Of a DNA stretch of 64,000 nucleotides, positions 4,152-48,442 are shown piece after piece (positions within the stretch are counted from its first letter, which is position 1; each line of letters starts with the position of its first letter). The notes under the pieces were generated by a model. That model did not search any database. It was not told where the DNA came from and saw only the letters and a list, made by a program, of their open reading frames with translations. The position numbers and the translations under genes were made by a program. The stretch is from positions 992,001 through 1,056,000 of the forward strand of contig JAIXMN010000008.1 in the NCBI GenBank assembly GCA_025716815.1. Reading direction: 5' to 3'. The DNA comes from Dichotomocladium elegans. Its lineage: Eukaryota; Mucoromycota; Mucoromycetes; Mucorales; Lichtheimiaceae.

Positions 4152-5555
4152 ATGGCGTCTGCTGCCAGCATTCTTCAACGTCAGTTCAAAGGTTAATGTC
4201 CCTCTTGATTCTGATTCACATTTGGGCTTTCTCTCATTCAACCATTCCCTCGCCTTTTTATGTGTTGGCTCCAGAACTCACTCGAAATCCTGTTCCCAGA
4301 TTCGTTGTCGATCTCAAGGACAATAGCATCTTTGAATGGTATCTTCTGGAGACGCATATCAATCCAGCATTAATTTCTGCTTAAGGCTCACGCCGGACGG
4401 GGAGTGGATAGGGCAGTCGCCATTATAGGGTCACCTAAAACTATCTATGAAGGGGGATACTTCAAGGTACCACCATTTTTTTAACCCTCCAAGACCTCAT
4501 GGAATGCGGTCTCTCTCCATCAACCCGCTCACTCCATCCATATTTAAGGCCACGATGTCATTTCCAGAAGACTACCCCTTCAACCCACCTACTTTTCAAT
4601 TCGATCGCGAATTCTATCATCCAAATGGTAAATTATGGAAAGGGAATCTGGGGTACTAGACAGGTGCTGATATGCTATCCATATAGTGTATCCTGATGGT
4701 CGGCTTTGCATCTCTATTCTCCACCCACCAGGCGATGATCCTGTAAGCGGCGAAAAGGCAGAGGTATGTGTGTCCATTGTACATATCTCTAGCGCTAGGG
4801 GAGATGTTCACTTGTAAGAAACACGCTGGGTTTGACGGATCTGTATTCTATATCCAGGAACGATGGAATCCGACGCAGGCAAGCTTTTGATCTGAGAGCT
4901 AGATAGGAGGAGATAATACGACTCACATGTTTTTCGTTTCTCTTTTTTGTCCATAGTCGGTTGAAAGTAAAAGTTCTTTTTTCTCTCTCTCTTTCTTGGG
5001 TCGAATGTGTGAATGTGCGGATGTGCGTGTATGCATACTAAGCAGAAAAATACCACACACTCTCGCACCCGCTTTGATACAGGTGTTCTTATTTCCATAA
5101 TCTCATTGCTGGCCGATCCCAACTGCTCAAGCCCGGCCAATGTTGACGCAGGTGTACGTTGCTAGGGATTAACATATGTCACCCAAAAGATTCTAAGGGC
5201 ATGGTTCATTTTATCAGGTGGCCTATCGGAAAAATCGTGATATGTTTGATTCGATTGTACGGAGTAAGTGGTTTTTGGCGATTTTTTTTTCTCATTCAAC
5301 AGAAAAAAAGGTCAAGTAGAAGCATCCAAAAAGGACATTCCTTCAGGATTTCAAATGCCCAAGACAGAAAAAGACTTTATGCTTGCCGCCCCTGCCGAAA
5401 TAGAAGAGGATGAGAACTTGTGAGTTTTAGGGAGGTGATTACTATTAACCAATCTCTTACTGGCGTATATTTCTCTCTGTAGTTGGTATGAATCCGCAGA
5501 AGATAGCGATTTTGACAACGACAGCAATGACGATAATGACGATGACAACTCATAA
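4152..5555 (+). CDS. Ubiquitin-conjugating enzyme E2, Cdc34/UBE2R type
   Basis: Transfers ubiquitin, normally with SCF-type ligases. Eleven exons join in phase: 4152-4191, 4275-4338, 4412-4466, 4549-4627, 4687-4763, 4858-4878, 4957-4966, 5083-5153, 5218-5263, 5311-5419 and 5483-5555, for 214 residues. The product shows the E2 HPN (YHPN), the catalytic Cys in GRLCISILHPP, and the insert DDPVSGEKAEERWNPTQ that marks the Cdc34/UBE2R and UBE2G group. SPANVDAG and VAYRKNRD follow, and the tail after residue 190 is strongly acidic (D/E/N rich), as in Cdc34. Exon 7 is only 10 nt; it is needed to restore the block after NPTQ. Intron 6 uses a GC donor (GCAAGC at 4879). A UBE2G assignment is possible, but the acidic tail favours Cdc34. 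Confidence 0.92.
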
Positions 5556-5684
5556 AGTATATAAAAGCATACGCACGGATCACCATCAGACGAATATATT
5601 CACAGACACATTCGATCCTCCTCATATTTCAATAAACTCAATCCTCGTAAAGTCATTCCAGAGCGGATGGACATGAACCTGAGA

Positions 5685-7400
5685 TGTATACGCATTACTT
5701 TATTTTCGAAAATAAAGAAATTTATGACGCATATAAAGAAGGACATAGATATACCCGTAGTCAACAGAGAATATCATCCCCTTTCTTACTCTTTAATTTA
5801 CCACGATGGTAGCTAGGTGCACTATTGCGATAACAATGGCGGAACAAGAAGGAAAGGAAGGATCCAGAGCTGCTGAGTATCGACGGCGGATGCGACGGCG
5901 GAAGGGTTGGAAGAAGGAACAAGGAGGGACGACGACGGACCAGCAACAACACCAGCGGCAGAAGCATCAGGGGAAGCAACGGAGGAAGCAAACGAAGACA
6001 AAAGCACCTCGACGAAGCCATGGTGGGAGACCTGCGCGGGGGGCAGCCAAATCACGGTCCCTATCTTCTCCTCTCGAGGCACTTGAGTGAGGCTGATATC
6101 TTTATCTAGAGAGAATCTGGAATATTAGAAGATTGCAGAATGGAACAAGGGTAACCTATTGCCCTTTTACTTTGCTCTTGGTAACTGACCAAAACTGCTC
6201 AATCGGATTGAGTTCAGGTGAGTACTGTGGAAGATAAGCACATACGATATCCTCAGCCTTATGGATAGGTGCATTATCAGGTACTCCAACTCGTCCACCG
6301 TAGCCTTAAGGAAGCTGAGATAATGTCCAGTTACAGCTCCTCTGCTCGCAACTTCAGATTGATATGTCCTCGTTCTTTTCTTGGTTGATGGCTGCGGGGG
6401 TCTCAAGCTACATTTAATGATCCCTGATGCTGAGATTGCTCCCAAGATTGTGGTTGTCTTTGCTCTTGTCTTTGATATTGTGACCACTGCAGGGGTCCCT
6501 TTCTTGGACCATGCCATGCTGCGCTTCATATTAATACGGAATCCAGACTTACCAAGAAAACGCAGTTTTTTTTTAAAAAAAGTCGATGTCGGTCATGTCC
6601 CATCTGCGCACCCAGTCAAGGCGTTCTTGGATCTTTGCATCGCTATTCCTGTCTACAGGCTGAACCCGAGCCATTTTCAGTGACAAGTTGCATTCGTTTT
6701 TCATAAATCGATGGAGCTAGATACTTTGAGAACCTTAAATCTTTGAAGCCGTTGCTCCATCAGCTGCTCTAGAACAATGGACGGATTCTCAACATCCCAT
6801 TCTAAAATAACACTCTTATCCTCTTCGTTGAGAATACATGAACAACCTCTGCCTCTACGTTTCTTAAAAATGCTGTCAGGGTCCTTTCCGTACTGTGATG
6901 CCCGTCGCTGAGCTGAACGAACATGGATTGCTAGCAGCTGATGCACTCAATACCTTCTCAAACATCCGTTGAAAAATCTGACCTTGTCTTGGTCAGTGTA
7001 CGCCATGTAACTGAGTTTGATCCCCGCTTCTTTCATCCGAATGTCTGTATCCTTTCGCTTGTGGTAGTAAGATCAGAGTTATCTCTGCAAGATATGCTAC
7101 GCAGATATTCAGGGCAAGCACGGACGGACTGCAGAGAGTACATTTCTTCATCAACAACATGATCTTGGCCATCTTCGTAAAGGAGTAGATTGCTATTTCA
7201 GAATGTGAAGTGTATAAAAGAGATGGAAGCGACTTCTTCTGGTGGATGCATGTGACATTTGATTTTCCAGCATGCGTATTCTGGGCAAAACGCGATTTTA
7301 TTTTTGTGATCCTGCGACTTCAGAACTGGCAGGGCTGCGACTTTGATTTTGGAAAAGAGTGCATGACCCGTGTCCTGCCATAGAGCACAAGCCAAGAAAC
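5685..7400 (-). mobile_element. Decayed Tc1/mariner-type (DDE_3) transposon
   Basis: A minus-strand transposase relic (6167-6946) lies between two end-like blocks. The right block (about 7395-7260) reads, outside to inside, TTTTCCAAAATCAAAGTCGC followed by a second GAAGTCGCAGGATC repeat. Closely similar blocks recur at 12310-12480, 26640-26720 and 48320-48440. The left block near 5690-5735 (TTTATTTTCGAAAATAAAG) resembles the block at 44655-44680. End points are approximate because no clean target duplication was seen. The element lies between the E2 and WD40 genes. Confidence 0.55.
6167..6946 (-). pseudogene. Tc1/mariner (IS630-like) transposase relic
   Basis: Read on the minus strand in several frames, the order matches a DDE_3 transposase. 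First comes KDPDSIFKKRRGRG and a helix-turn-helix-like part (LNEEDKSVILEW). Then QERLDWVRRW, RINMKRSMAWSKKGTP and AISASGIIKCSL follow, and finally a shifted-frame NAPIHKAEDIVCAYLPQYS and ELNPIEQFWS. The last blocks carry the DN and the final acidic residue of the DDE motif. Frame changes near 6260-6290, around 6540-6700 and a T-run near 6565 show that no intact protein can be made. Confidence 0.7.
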
Positions 7401-44018: not shown

Positions 44019-44533
44019 ACTGCGAACAAACAAAAGTGCGAAAAACAAAGAACTAGTCCTGGAACACTACCATGATTCCCACTTGTTACTTCCTCCTGAA
44101 TTCAAATAAATAAACAACGATTTGCTTACATGCACATCCTCACGTCTCCACACACATCAAGGTTTAAGCAAGACGGAAGAATGTCTTTTTTTTTTGAGTC
44201 GAGCAAGGCTCTTCTCTTCTCGAAGACAAAGCCATCTTCTCCGTGGAAGCAAGACTTTCTTCTGCTTTAAAGCAATACTACACTCAAAAGGACAGTCCTT
44301 CCCTTTATTGAGTGCAACATGAAAGGTTCTCTGGACACAGTCGGTGTGTAGCTGTATACCTGTTGGGCGACAAACTTCAAGCCACGTGCTAGACGCTCAT
44401 CGTGGCAGCAGATCCCTGCAGAGAAAAGCCCTTGCTATCAATAAACCAGGCACACTGGTTGTCTGTTTCAACATGACGTTTGTTTGGATTATATATCGTA
44501 TTTGGGATGCTTTCCTTGTGCATGTGGTTGTGT
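44019..44533. other. Intergenic between the ExK gene and the pogo-like end
   Basis: No gene or repeat recognised. Confidence 0.4.
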
Positions 44534-44610
44534 ACAGTAGTCGCGCGATATACCGGCCGGCCCTATTTTCCCAGAAATCAAGCGGTATATCGAGAAACCG
44601 GTATATCCAT
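44534..44610. mobile_element. Pogo-like terminal repeat (left end)
   Basis: TA followed by CAGTAGTCGCGCGATATACCGG, the reverse complement of the end at 39032-39055. An internal CCCAGAAATCAAGCGGTATATCGAGAAACC-type block (44571 on) is also shared with 38992-39020, in direct orientation. No transposase follows; the mariner-like block and Fanzor gene lie next to it. Confidence 0.5.
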
Positions 44611-44769
44611 TTGAAGACCGCCGGGTTGTCTGGGAACGGAGATTGGCATGCACAGTATGATGTACTTTATTTTCAAAAATAAATGTCGTGCAAAATACAA
44701 GAAAAATGTCGCATAGAATTATATAAATTTGTCGTATCAATAGGTAAAAAGATTTCGCATCCATGGATG

Positions 44770-44924
44770 AAACCCTGTTAGTCAGCAGAAGACATTATGC
44801 CTTCTCCAATCCCGTTGACTTACAACACACCGTCCTTCCAAAGGAAGGGGGCTTGCCCCGAAGCGCTGTGGTTATCCTGGGTGCGTCAGCGATAACTGAC
44901 GCGGAAAATTCTTGGTTGGGGTTA
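44770..44924 (-). ncRNA. Candidate Fanzor guide-RNA scaffold (fRNA/omega RNA)
   Basis: Directly after the Fanzor B stop (44924-44922) three perfect hairpins occur within 69 bases. They are a 7-bp stem at 44883-44889/44896-44902 (GCGTCAG/CTGACGC), a 4-bp GC stem at 44848-44851/44856-44859, and a 6-bp stem at 44834-44839/44843-44848. In TnpB and Fanzor systems the guide RNA scaffold lies at or just past the nuclease 3' end and continues to the element end. Position and structure fit; transcription and exact ends are unknown. Confidence 0.4.
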
Positions 44925-46666
44925 CGGTCGTCTCGACCCGCCAGAGCGTGCACCTCGTGGCCTTCCTGGCCTTGCCCGTCGTGGTCTCACGCTGCGCTGC
45001 TCTGGTTCAGGTGAGTGTGGTCTTCCACCAGCTGTAGACGCTTGTGCAGCATTTCTTCTCTGGAACCTTGCTGGGATGATACCATCTTCCCGAAGACCCC
45101 GGAGGATATGATGCATGTTGAGAGCCGCCGCCAGATCCCGGTTACAGAACCTTGGTTGATAAACACCCTCTGCCATGCCTGCTGTACAGTTTTGATTTGT
45201 GCATCTATTAAAACGTCAAAATATTAAAATCTTTTTGGAAATATAACACAACATGCCCGTCCATCATACCGTAGCAGGCCATGGCAGATCGTGAGCGGAT
45301 TGTCGGGTCGTCGATATGGGCGTGGATTAGGAACCATTTTAAAGGTAGCAAGGCTTTCATTGACACATATAGGGCAGCACTTGCTTGTCTTGTACTCGTC
45401 GATCAAATAATTATTGCAATTGTTCTTCTTCAACAGCCGCCGGAAGGCGACACCACGGATAGGCTCGTGATATCTTGTATGCGGCGCAGACCAATTTCCC
45501 ATCACGAAAACGGACCTACTGCCAAACTTCGCATTCAAAGATTCGAGAAGCTTTTCATCTGCTTGCTGCTTCTTGTAAAACGCTGACAGGCGAAGTTTTC
45601 GAAAAAGAAATTGTGGGTTCGGGTGGTTCGTAGTGGTTGTCGCGTAGAAAGATTTGAGAACTACAGAGACCCTGTTCTTGGCGGCGAGGTATCCGTCGTA
45701 GTTGGGTACGGAAAGCGTATGACTTTGAAATTGGGATAGATTCTGCTCAGCCAACGCGGCCTCGGGTCGCTCTAACTTGAGTCGTTCTCGGAGTCTGCGG
45801 TACCGTTTGGTCTTTCGTGTATGATCTTGAAGCCGCTTTGTATATCGGAAGGTCTGGTGGTTGTCGGGTAAAGAGTTCTCATGAACGCAATACAACAGGT
45901 CCCTTCTGCCAGGATCAATGGTGACCCATTGTCCTCTATAGTCTTCGTTCCGGACTATCTGTGGGGTGACGTACTCGATATCTTCGCTCTGGATGCCAAA
46001 TCTCTGTCCGAAGCCCGATTGAAGGCCATTTGTCTTCTTGAACACAGTAACACCGACGCCATCAGTGTGAATAGTCCCACGGAATTGGAGCAGCTCGGAT
46101 TCTTGGGGGTTGAAAGCTCTTGATTTCAGGTTTACAACCCGTCTCCAGTACTCCATATTGCTTGTGTGGGATTCCATTTTGCAGCCCAGGATATGGTAGC
46201 AAAGCATTTTCGTATCAATCTCCATGTAGCATGGTGACCACGAGCGACGAAGTGGAAAACAGTTGAATCCGCGTTTTCCGTTCTGTTGACAAACACATGC
46301 AAGCTGGAAGAAGGCGTTGAAATGCTTAACAGGATTGGCCTTGGCGTCGTAATAGATACTCTGGCGTTGGAATTGGTGGTTTCGGGGGTGAGCGTTTAAG
46401 ACAGGCTGTAGGATATCGTATGCTTCCCGAAGAAATCCAGGTTCGGCATTAATGTCTTCCCTCAAAAAACCTCGACGGGCAATTGCTAGCTTGAATCCTG
46501 TGACATGCCGGGTGATGGTTTCATAAAGGTCCTGGCGTACTTGATCGGGGCTTAGGCCCTGTGCGATTAACTCTCGCTTGCGGTCGGCTTTTCGCTGGCG
46601 AAGATTCAGGATGACATTGATGACACGCCGAAGGTGTTGTCCGAACCGCATGTGGACATTATTCAC
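44922..46666 (-). CDS. Fanzor (TnpB-like RNA-guided nuclease), copy B, catalytic part intact
   Basis: Two exons, 46666-45270 and 45204-44922, join in phase 2 for 559 residues. RuvC-I is TIDPGRRDLLYCVHE (Asp251). The zinc finger is CCPIC then CHGLLR and, after the 65-nt intron, CTNQNC. RuvC-III is CNRDLAAALN (Asp489). The canonical RuvC-II glutamate is missing (FVMGNWSAP); a Glu in DEYKTSKCC (424), conserved in copy A, probably replaces it, as described for Fanzors. The C-terminal 40 residues are Arg/Gly/Pro rich. Fanzors are eukaryotic TnpB homologues that cut DNA using an RNA guide, often carried by transposons. ATG at 46666 is only the first Met of the open frame; homology continues upstream in damaged frames, so the true N-terminus is lost or the gene is newly dead. 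Confidence 0.85.
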
Positions 46667-47084
46667 GTAAGCAGTATAAATCTTGTGCCTTCATAAGAAG
46701 AACATTGCTGGGAATAAGGGAACGCAGGCCTGTCGTATCCGGATATCCGAAGGTACTCATCCTTGTGGCGATTAATTAGTTCTCGGATGCGGGCAGTTTC
46801 GCCTTGGGTGCGGCGTTCGGCTTTGTTAACCATGGAGAGCCAAACTTCTGAAAAGAACTTCTACGTGATGTTTTCCTGGATGTTAAAATTTGGATCGCGC
46901 GCTACCTCGTTGATGAAAATATATTTGGCGAACACGTACGCCTGTGTCATGGTGTTGTGGACAAGGTCGACCAACTGATACAGACGTTCACGATACTGCT
47001 GTCGCCAGCCGATGCCCCGTATGGACCAATTATACGGTCAGTGCGCTTGCCTTCGGGAATGACGGGGCGGTGGGGTTGGGCCAT
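46667..47084 (-). pseudogene. Damaged N-terminal part of Fanzor copy B
   Basis: From a likely original ATG at 47084 (MAQPHRPVIPEGKRTDR) homology to copy A continues as WRQQYRERLYQLVDLVHN, YVFAKYIFINEVARD, KFFSEVWLSMVNKAERRT and RPAFPYSQQCSSYEG. It is interrupted by a frame change near 47035, an in-frame TAG near 46868 and a one-base shift near 46688. No splice pair removes all three. Stop-codon readthrough is not suggested by context. Confidence 0.7.
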
Positions 47085-47313
47085 TTAGTGGGTGAAGACC
47101 TAGGGTATATTATTTCTTAGTATCGCAGAGACGAGTATGAAAGCGACCGTATTACCTTCAACCGTAAATGTGGTGCTGTGTTATTTTCTGTAGGCTGTAT
47201 GGGCTCTAGTTTTGTATGTGGAAGAACAGAATTGCCAGGTAGGGCATTTTCCAATTCGTTATAGTGATAATTCATTATAGTGATGCGATTTCCTGGAATC
47301 GAGGATATCACTA

Positions 47314-47332
47314 TAACGGGCGGCCACTGTAC
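47314..47332. mobile_element. Second pogo-like terminal end
   Basis: CTATAACGGGCGGCCACTG followed by TA; ends in CACTG next to TA like pogo/Tigger termini, but different from the 39055/44534 family. TTATAGTGATA motifs at 47261-47283 form internal repeats. Confidence 0.35.
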
Positions 47333-47799
47333 CGACGTGAGGACTATCTGAAATCAACAATGAAATCCCAAACAATTCCAATAAGTAATTCCGAGAGACC
47401 ATCTCAAGAATAATCCGATACATATCCGGTACTTGTGTATTGTAGGAATATTGTACTTCTTTTCGTACTCCCTCAGTCTCTTACAACACAACAAAACACG
47501 ACACTGCTGTCATCCTTATCCATACGTTCAGGAAGTGTAGGTACATAATGAACAATTTCTCTGAATATTACAATGAGAACACAGGAGTCTCCTGAAAGCC
47601 ATTACTTCATTATTCCATTTGATAACCAGTTTCGGAGTTACAATCTCCTAGCTGAATGGCTCATTGACAAAAAGACAAGCACATTCTGATAGTTCTTTGT
47701 TCTTTCCAAGAATAAACTTACTCTTCTCGATATAGGATTCTTTTGCGTACGGCTGTTTTTAGCGACAATTGGATTCTAGAACAATAAATGTATTGTAAC

Positions 47800-48442
47800 T
47801 TTCTAATGCTCTTCATTGAGAATACACGATCGGCCCTCTGCGTCTACGTTTCTTAAAATGCTGTCAGAGTCCTTTTCTTACTGTAATGCCCATCGCTGTG
47901 CTGAACGAACATGGAGTCCTAGCTGTTTTGCTGCAGCTGATGCACTCATTAACTCCTCAACACCAGTTTGAAAAATTTGACTTTATCTTGGTCAGTGTAC
48001 GCTGTGTACTGCGCTTGATCCCCGCTTCTTTTATCCGAATATCTGGATCCTTTCGCTTGGGAATGTTCGTGGCAGTAAGCTCAGGGTTATCTTTGCACGA
48101 TATGCTACGCAGATATTCAGTGTAAGAGCAAATGGATTGAAGTGAGTACATTCCCTCATCAGAGACATAGTCCATAGATTCAGGTCAGCCACGCTCATCA
48201 ACGACATGATCTTGGCCATCGTTATAAAAAAATAGATTGCTCATCTCAGAATGTAAAAGTTTATAAAGAGAAAGAGTCATAAGGATTAGATGGATTTGCG
48301 ACATCTTTCCCTGTATGTATCTGACATTTGCTTTGTCTTCACGCGTAAAGCTTTCTGGCAAAAATGCGATTTGTATTTTTGCGATCCTGCGACTTCAGAA
48401 CTGGCAGGGTGCGACTTTGATTTTGAAAAATAGTGTATAACT
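47800..48442 (-). mobile_element. Mariner transposase N-terminal relic and right end
   Basis: Minus strand: the end block at 48442-48300, then leader sequence very similar to 7395-6950, then RSAQRWALQ with EKDSDSI and SCILNEEH (47910-47815). It is about 75-80% identical to 6830-7395 over several hundred bases by eye. Stops and shifts show decay. Confidence 0.65.

What the first reader, a model, noticed from the sequence alone, without database searches (positions are those of the whole stretch)
44922..46666. Fanzor RNA-guided nuclease with an intact catalytic half
The 559-residue spliced frame keeps RuvC-I Asp (DPGRRDLLYC), both zinc-finger Cys pairs, RuvC-III Asp (NRDLAAALN) and a basic tail. 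These are TnpB/Fanzor hallmarks in a fungal nuclear genome, with an intron proving eukaryotic expression history. Known: Fanzors are programmable eukaryotic TnpB relatives. Inference: this copy was active recently, because lesions are confined to the N-terminal 140 codons.
Basis: partly seen in the sequence, partly recalled or inferred. Interest (0 to 1): 0.85.

Follow-up and report, generated by a model that had tools for sequence, protein, structure and literature searches.

The report
Dead copy of spreading Fanzor transposon
The window holds a broken copy of an RNA-guided DNA-cutting enzyme gene carried by a jumping gene in a mould genome, and the same genome holds many younger, unbroken copies that look recently active, which makes it a good place to ask what such enzymes do for their transposons.

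Summary
On the minus strand, 46666-45270 plus 45204-44922, joined across a 65-nt GT-AG intron, encode the catalytic half of a Fanzor1 nuclease. The closest solved relative is Parasitella parasitica Fanzor1; three RuvC residues and four zinc-finger cysteines are present. "Recently active" is wrong for this copy. Its N-terminus carries a deletion, a stop and a frameshift, and it differs by 4.3% from 11 open-frame copies that differ among themselves by 0.6%. The family is young: of 100 listed matches in the 39.4-Mb genome, 27 cover the queried stretch at >=90% identity, and nine intact exon-1 frames show dN/dS about 0.09, biased low by row choice. The unit is a 3.8-kb Fanzor-only element (44665-48437) with TA-flanked ends. 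It keeps a remnant of a Tc1/IS630-type transposase, and its family's right end is identical over 30 nt to that of an element holding an intact transposase. After the stop codon lies an RNA hairpin with strong covariation and no Rfam match, the likely guide-RNA scaffold. Fanzor1 in mariner elements is already published, so this is a new member, useful as a test system.

The parts
44663..44664 (-). TA at the right (Fanzor 3') boundary, inferred target-site duplication
   Evidence: Sequence; right ends of 31 of 32 copies located, all 31 followed by TA
44665..48437 (-). Fanzor-only Tc1/mariner-type element, 3.8 kb
   Evidence: Boundaries where homology with 11 other genomic copies stops
44665..44690 (-). 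Right terminal sequence, shared with a transposase-bearing element (C57)
   Evidence: 30 of 30 nt (the TA included) identical between L013 and C57; 27-nt window match at 96%; the 18-mer ATTTTTGAAAATAAAGTA occurs 178 times in the genome, its reversed control 0 times
44770..44907 (-). Candidate guide-RNA (reRNA/omegaRNA) scaffold region
   Evidence: Conserved across three families; 11-pair structure 97.5% paired, 6 pairs with double changes; no Rfam match
44881..44907 (-). Hairpin with a TTATCG-type loop, 14 nt after the Fanzor stop codon
   Evidence: 17 distinct of 18 sequences: 7 of 7 pairs with changes on both sides, 95% of cells paired, covariation 0.751 vs shuffled 0.291 +/- 0.044, 0 of 500 shuffles as high
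44922..45204 (-). Fanzor exon 2: second Cys pair (CTNQNC), RuvC-III Asp (NRD), basic tail
45205..45269 (-). Intron, 65 nt, GT-AG
   Evidence: conserved position in 14 of 15 copies inspected
45270..46666 (-). Fanzor exon 1, open part: RuvC-I Asp (DPGRRD), RuvC-II Glu (DEYKTS), first Cys pair
46667..47084 (-). Broken N-terminal part of exon 1 (small deletion, in-frame stop, single-base deletion)
   Evidence: Comparison with intact-frame copy L015
47788..47979 (-). Remnant of the Tc1/IS630-type transposase N-terminal helix-turn-helix
   Evidence: C101:1039788-1039979 match; the family's stretch is 88% identical over 366 nt to an element with an intact transposase frame, which has Pfam DDE_3 1.8e-30 and NCBIfam IS630 3.3e-48
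48403..48437 (-). Left terminal sequence
   Evidence: Found, with up to 4 edits allowed, in 30 of 31 left ends examined
48438..48439 (-). TA at the left boundary, inferred target-site duplication

Best explanation
This is a dead copy of a Fanzor1 gene carried by a non-autonomous Tc1/mariner-type transposon. Shown: the element's ends, the TA flanks, the transposase remnant, the Fanzor gene with one intron, the covarying hairpin after the stop codon, and many young relatives, nine of them checked to have an intact exon-1 frame with few amino-acid changes. Inferred: a transposase encoded elsewhere in the genome, such as the intact IS630/Tc1-type gene in an element with the same right end and a related left end, cuts and pastes the element. 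The Fanzor protein binds an RNA read from its own 3' end through the right terminus into the flanking DNA, and uses that flank as guide to cut the matching empty site on the sister or homologous chromosome. Repair from the occupied copy then restores or adds a copy. This would explain why a gene not needed for transposition keeps its protein sequence while the element spreads.
For: Fanzor1 sequence and fold. Catalytic and zinc residues. Unit boundaries and TA flanks. Intact transposase frame in an element with the same right end and a related left end. 27 of 100 listed matches cover at least 464 of the 465 query residues at >=90% identity, 23 of them without a stop there, the window's own included. 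Mean divergence 0.6% among 11 copies. 26 synonymous and 8 non-synonymous differences from the majority codons over 9 of 11 copies, omega about 0.09. Covarying hairpin. Right flanks (putative guides): 26 of 27 had no second match in the genome (simple repeats are skipped by that search). Published: Fanzor1-only mariner elements with TA TSDs (PMC3627910, section 7 read); RNA-guided cleavage by Fanzor1 and ghost loci (PMC10432273, passages and sections 7 and 11 read); Fanzor1 reRNAs running about 15 nt past the TSD (PMC10711439, section 27 read).
Against: No RNA or protein expression data and no cleavage data. No clean empty site among 27 joined flank pairs; the only paralogous place with both flanks has 51 nt between them. 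The dN/dS set was drawn from the best protein matches, which biases it downward. The hairpin starts about 240 nt from the right end, whereas PpFz1's whole RNA is reported as 75 nt (passage), so it could lie outside the mature guide RNA. The more distant Fanzors L085, L028 (47-48%) and the inner Fanzor of C57 (51%) showed no such hairpin downstream by my motif scan. Single-sequence folds are little or no better than shuffles (z -2.75, -1.84, -0.22, -0.16). The C57 transposase element is itself rearranged and carries a Fanzor in the opposite direction, and the second transposase copy (C44) loses homology before the right end.
Confidence: 0.7

Rival explanations
1. The Fanzor is passive cargo: it rides on an element moved by a transposase in trans and does nothing for it. 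The low dN/dS is an artefact of picking the best-preserved copies from one recent burst.
For: The copies compared are young and were ranked by protein score, so few amino-acid changes are expected from the choice of rows; in Tc1/mariner elements only the ends need to be present for movement in trans (recalled).
Against: Given 26 synonymous differences about 89 non-synonymous ones are expected at neutrality; 8 were seen. A family with 57% identical protein keeps the catalytic motifs and intron, and the hairpin keeps pairing.
Confidence: 0.2
2. The window copy is still functional, expressed as an N-terminally shortened nuclease from 46666 or an internal start.
For: The catalytic half is open and spliceable.
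Against: The missing part belongs to the region aligned to PpFz1 from query residue 22 on; in solved Fanzors REC and WED domains read the target-adjacent DNA (PMC11423790, passages) and lie in that half (my inference). The copy's dN/dS is higher than among intact ones.
Confidence: 0.05
3. The conserved hairpin is a 3'-UTR or transposon-end element (for instance a transposase or processing site), not part of the Fanzor guide RNA.
For: It is also kept in elements with no scored Fanzor match (14 of 16 sampled ends, and window 5749-5845), lies far from the guide position, and was not seen downstream of three more distant Fanzors.
Against: It sits between the Fanzor stop and the right end in the families that have it; ghost loci with the RNA but no Fanzor are known in S. 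punctatus (PMC10432273, section 7).
Confidence: 0.25

Closest known systems
Parasitella parasitica Fanzor1 (PpFz1; PDB 9cf0-9cf3)
   Same: Best solved relative by sequence (E 3.1e-118 for an intact copy) and by fold; same DPG and DE motifs and first Cys pair in the alignment; also a Mucorales host
   Different: 93 residues of the PpFz1 chain (1002-1094) between two matched blocks, apparently the roughly 100-aa FRI insertion described in PMC11423790 (passages), have no counterpart here
Spizellomyces punctatus SpuFz1 and its ghost elements
   Same: Fanzor1 in a multicopy IR-flanked element; many Fanzor-less elements keep ends and an RNA region (PMC10432273 section 7)
   Different: No transposase was found between the IRs of the S. 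punctatus elements (section 11); here a related element carries an intact IS630/Tc1-type transposase frame
Fanzor1 elements of the Tc/mariner type (PUl-4, PUl-1, PGv-1)
   Same: Fanzor-only or Fanzor plus transposase, TIRs, TA TSDs (PMC3627910 section 7)
   Different: Other hosts; here a young multicopy family with an internal transposase remnant and a covarying RNA hairpin

Membership tests
Fanzor1 | RuvC D...E...D triad with DPG signature | tested here: met
   Codons at 45914-45916, 45395-45397, 45135-45137; first two aligned to PpFz1 and SpuFz1; DPG as Fanzor signature from PMC10711439 (passage)
Fanzor1 | C4 zinc finger followed by RD motif | tested here: met
   C431, C434, C467, C472 and NRD in the spliced frame; motif as in PMC3627910 abstract
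Fanzor1 | Sequence or fold match to characterised Fanzor1 | tested here: met
Fanzor1 | Significant curated family model | tested here: not met
   Pfam PF07282 and NCBIfam NF040570 hits are below cut-off; the Parasitella relative P0021 also falls below in Pfam, so the models look insensitive here; the protein collection lists PF26935 for most of 118 relatives, a model that the Pfam copy here did not report
Fanzor1 | Complete, uninterrupted gene | tested here: not met
   The window copy has three N-terminal lesions: a pseudogene member; copies with intact exon-1 frame exist
Fanzor1 | RNA-guided DNA cleavage | not testable with these tools
   Needs biochemistry
Fanzor1 | Guide RNA overlapping the element's right end | tested here: inconclusive
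   Covarying hairpin found; expression and extent unknown
PpFz1-type with FRI domain | About 100-aa insertion in RuvC | tested here: not met
   No counterpart in phmmer alignments
Tc1/mariner (IS630) transposon | TA target-site duplication | tested here: inconclusive
   TA at the boundary in 30 of 31 left and 31 of 32 right ends, but no clean empty site among 27 pairs
Tc1/mariner (IS630) transposon | DDE transposase of the superfamily | tested here: met
   Only a remnant in the window unit; intact relatives score IS630 3.3e-48 and DDE_3 1.8e-30

The most novel reading that the evidence does not exclude
Fanzor activity leaves a footprint on where its element survives. Among 178 exact right ends, the base after the TA is T in 47 and C in 8 of 55 elements with a scored Fanzor match, and never A or G; in the 123 others it is T 51, A 41, C 26, G 5. 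In the window family it is T in 28 of 31 on the right, against an equivalent 11 of 30 on the left. This fits a target-adjacent or scaffold requirement reaching one base past the TSD (PpFz1's reported TAM is ATN, passages), so that only insertions the Fanzor can guard are kept. The signal is confounded: 15 Fanzor-less elements with a transposase match show T 8, C 6, A 1 (Fanzor vs these, one-sided p 0.013), so family or transposase preference may explain most of it.
Probability: 0.2. Interest if true: 0.75.

Novelty: new member of a known kind. Interest (0 to 1): 0.5.

Why it matters
The role of Fanzors in eukaryotes was stated as unknown in 2023 (PMC10432273 section 11). Here one genome holds a young Fanzor-only family, an intact transposase frame in an element with the same right end and a related left end, elements without a Fanzor match that keep the RNA region, and broken old copies such as the window's. 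That is a natural set of controls for testing whether the nuclease helps its transposon persist.

Tried and rejected
The inverted repeat 44532-44552 / 47312-47332 first looked like the element's ends; comparison of copies showed the true ends at 44665 and 48437, so it was dropped.

The idea that the right-flank T is a clean sign of a Fanzor TAM looked strong (first count on 100 of 178 ends; all 178, one-sided Fisher 1.9e-8) but weakened after stratifying by transposase match. One search used all 100 rows; one search used 97 of the 150 rows, rows beside Fanzor copies having been left out by hand (counts). A sample of 16 ends without a Fanzor match (8 with A, 8 with T) showed that 7 of the 8 A-type ends, and 3 of the 8 T-type, belong to one ghost family. 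Kept only as the novel case.

Empty sites: 27 joined flank pairs gave no clean empty site. One paralogous place (C35:678119-678294) matches both flanks of copy L021 but has 51 nt between them; the left flank of L074 has one further match. Not used as proof.

Hairpin alignment: the 18 rows were chosen from those found; rows with the same 27 nt were left out (for example L084, L087, L098, L100, L103, L104), and one chance motif in L108 was dropped. L101 and L107 were not given to because no motif was seen; B-family loci L086 and L092 were not caught by the script. Of five measures, 'further pair types' did not exceed shuffles (178 of 500) and 'pairs with a change on both sides' was reached by 5 of 500.

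Rfam gave no match to 44600-45000. C57's Fanzor (L027) was first taken as part of an autonomous transposase-plus-Fanzor element; it points the other way and the element's own Fanzor tail is decayed, so no intact two-gene element is claimed. One search printed nothing (pattern too strict) and was redone.

Full report
What is there. The finding's frame is on the minus strand: exon 1 from 46666 to 45270, a 65-nt GT-AG intron 45269-45205, and exon 2 from 45204 to 44922, giving 559 codons. Splicing restores CHGLLRCTNQNC and then NRDLAAALN, so the intron must be removed to give the second Cys pair and the last catalytic Asp. The same intron position with GT-AG ends is seen in 14 of 15 copies inspected, including 3 of 3 of a family whose protein is 57-58% identical; one open-frame copy, L021, has lost the GT.

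Is it a Fanzor. Yes. Against all PDB chain sequences the exon-1 stretch finds two sequences at E<=1, both Fanzor1: P. parasitica (4.1e-81) and S. punctatus (7e-37). An intact copy's exon-1 product of 616 aa gives 3.1e-118 and 3.3e-43. Its AlphaFold2 model (28 sequences, pLDDT 81.8, pTM 0.80) matches Fanzor1 chains at ranks 1-7, TM-score to PpFz1 0.73-0.77 by query length. In the protein collection 118 relatives were found at E<=1e-10, the best 48% identical (Mucor mucedo); the named ones are listed mainly as hypothetical or uncharacterized, some as transposase. Curated models are not sensitive here: the Pfam TNB domain and NCBIfam TnpB hits stay below cut-off, as does Pfam for the Parasitella relative P0021. 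The PpFz1 insertion (FRI) is missing in this family. A WD40-type gene in the window has Lichtheimia hyalospora (55%) as its best named match, then other Mucorales, so the host is probably a Mucorales fungus; its name is not known to me.

The element. Homology among 12 copies stops at fixed points. In the window these are 44665 and 48437. The ends are TACAC... on the left and ...ATTTTTGAAAATAAAG on the right, each bordered by TA. I located 31 of 32 right ends and 30 of 31 left ends examined, allowing a few edits; those examined are part of the 40 family right-end places seen. The exact 18-mer of the right end plus TA occurs 178 times in the genome and its reversed control 0 times. Upstream of the Fanzor the element keeps a remnant of a transposase helix-turn-helix. 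An intact 475-codon open frame (stop to stop) of that transposase type occurs in two places 98.2% identical over 2.75 kb (L041/L043 and C57), with Pfam DDE_3 at 1.8e-30 and NCBIfam IS630 at 3.3e-48. The C57 element's right end is identical to that of L013 over 30 of 30 nt, the TA included, and its left end shares the CAAAGTCGCA...GAAGTCGCAGGAT part; the C44 copy loses homology before the right end. So the window's element is most simply a transposase-deleted, Fanzor-keeping derivative moved in trans. That step is inferred.

Age and selection. Eleven copies with open frames of 606-639 aa differ by 0.6% on average (range 0.3-1.0%); the window copy differs from them by 4.3%. Of the 100 matches listed (a lower bound, 91 of 741 candidates scored), 27 cover at least 464 of 465 residues at 90% identity or more, 23 of them without a stop in that stretch, the window's own included. 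Nine of the 11 fetched copies have the same start and exon-1 length. They show 26 synonymous and 8 non-synonymous differences from the majority codons, omega about 0.09; about 89 non-synonymous would be expected at neutrality. Against five of the 11, the window copy gives 0.22-0.27 over 465 codons. These 11 copies were the best protein matches, so omega is biased downward. The window copy has a small deletion near codon 20, a stop at codon 85 and a single-base deletion near codon 144 of the intact frame.

The RNA. Fourteen nucleotides after the stop codon a hairpin begins. In the window family, a second family, a third (C57 and window 5749-5845) and relatives without a Fanzor match, its stem changes while pairing is kept: 17 distinct sequences of 18, 7 of 7 pairs with changes on both sides, 95% of cells paired, covariation 0.751 against 0.291 +/- 0.044 in shuffles and at most 0.143 in slid controls; the count of further pair types did not exceed shuffles. 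An 11-sequence alignment of the wider region gave the same picture. Shuffles do not remove relatedness, but changes on both sides in separate families are hard to explain otherwise. Three more distant Fanzors (L085, L028, inner Fanzor of C57) showed no such hairpin downstream by motif scan. Folding single sequences is not convincing (z -2.75, -1.84, -0.22, -0.16), and Rfam has no match. By analogy with published Fanzor1 RNAs that run past the TSD (PMC10711439 section 27) I read it as part of the guide-RNA scaffold. Its distance of about 240 nt from the right end is long, and this is the weakest part of that reading.

Flank bias. The base after the right TA differs between elements with a Fanzor match within 2.6 kb (T 47, C 8, A 0, G 0; n 55) and without (T 51, A 41, C 26, G 5; n 123), one-sided Fisher 1.9e-8. 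In the window family the right side is T in 28 of 31, while the left side, read on the other strand, is T in 11 of 30. PpFz1's TAM is reported as ATN (PMC11423790, passages). Against this, 15 elements without a Fanzor match but with a transposase match within 4.5 kb (97 of 150 rows used) show T 8, C 6, A 1, leaving one-sided p 0.013 between them and the Fanzor group; the remaining 108 show T 43, A 40, C 20, G 5. In a sample of 16 ends without a Fanzor match, 7 of 8 A-type and 3 of 8 T-type belong to one ghost family. The bias is therefore a lead, not a result.

What is known. Fanzor1-only mariner elements with TA TSDs, ghost elements, RNA-guided cleavage and reRNAs past the TSD are all published in other organisms (PMC3627910 section 7; PMC10432273 passages and sections 7 and 11; PMC10711439 sections 25 and 27). 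In the open-licence library I found no paper with both 'Fanzor' and 'Mucoromycota' and one with 'Fanzor' and 'Mucorales', the PpFz1 structure paper, of which I saw passages. Subscription papers were not searchable. Verdict: observation confirmed, copy dead, family young and apparently maintained, new member of a known kind.

Noticed in passing
window 5749-7300 (minus strand): A second relative in the same window with no Fanzor frame seen: hairpin region at 5749-5845 next to broken transposase pieces at 6167-6592 and 6701-6946.
   Followed up: partly
L095-L100, L102-L104, L109 (contigs C1, C2, C13, C24, C36, C39, C41, C46): A ghost family keeping the right end and the hairpin, with no scored Fanzor match nearby; 7 of 8 sampled ends with A after the TA belong to it.
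   Followed up: partly
L027 and L042 (C57:1654500-1665100): An element with an intact transposase frame, a decayed Fanzor tail plus hairpin at its right end, and another, open-frame Fanzor in the opposite direction inside it.
   Followed up: partly
window 47253-47335 and L013 about 5650-5850: Repeat-like stretch (CACTATAACGGG-type) within the family's left region, shorter in the window copy; a similar repeat flanks copy L016.
   Followed up: no
L021 about 4399-4648: By eye from the letters printed, this family member lies just downstream of another Fanzor's exon-2-like motif, i.e. perhaps in the 3' region of a second Fanzor element.
   Followed up: no
C68:71236-72184 and C37:329073-330370: Roughly 1-kb places keeping the family's 3' end and a transposase fragment with no Fanzor match listed between them, perhaps internally deleted derivatives.
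   Followed up: no
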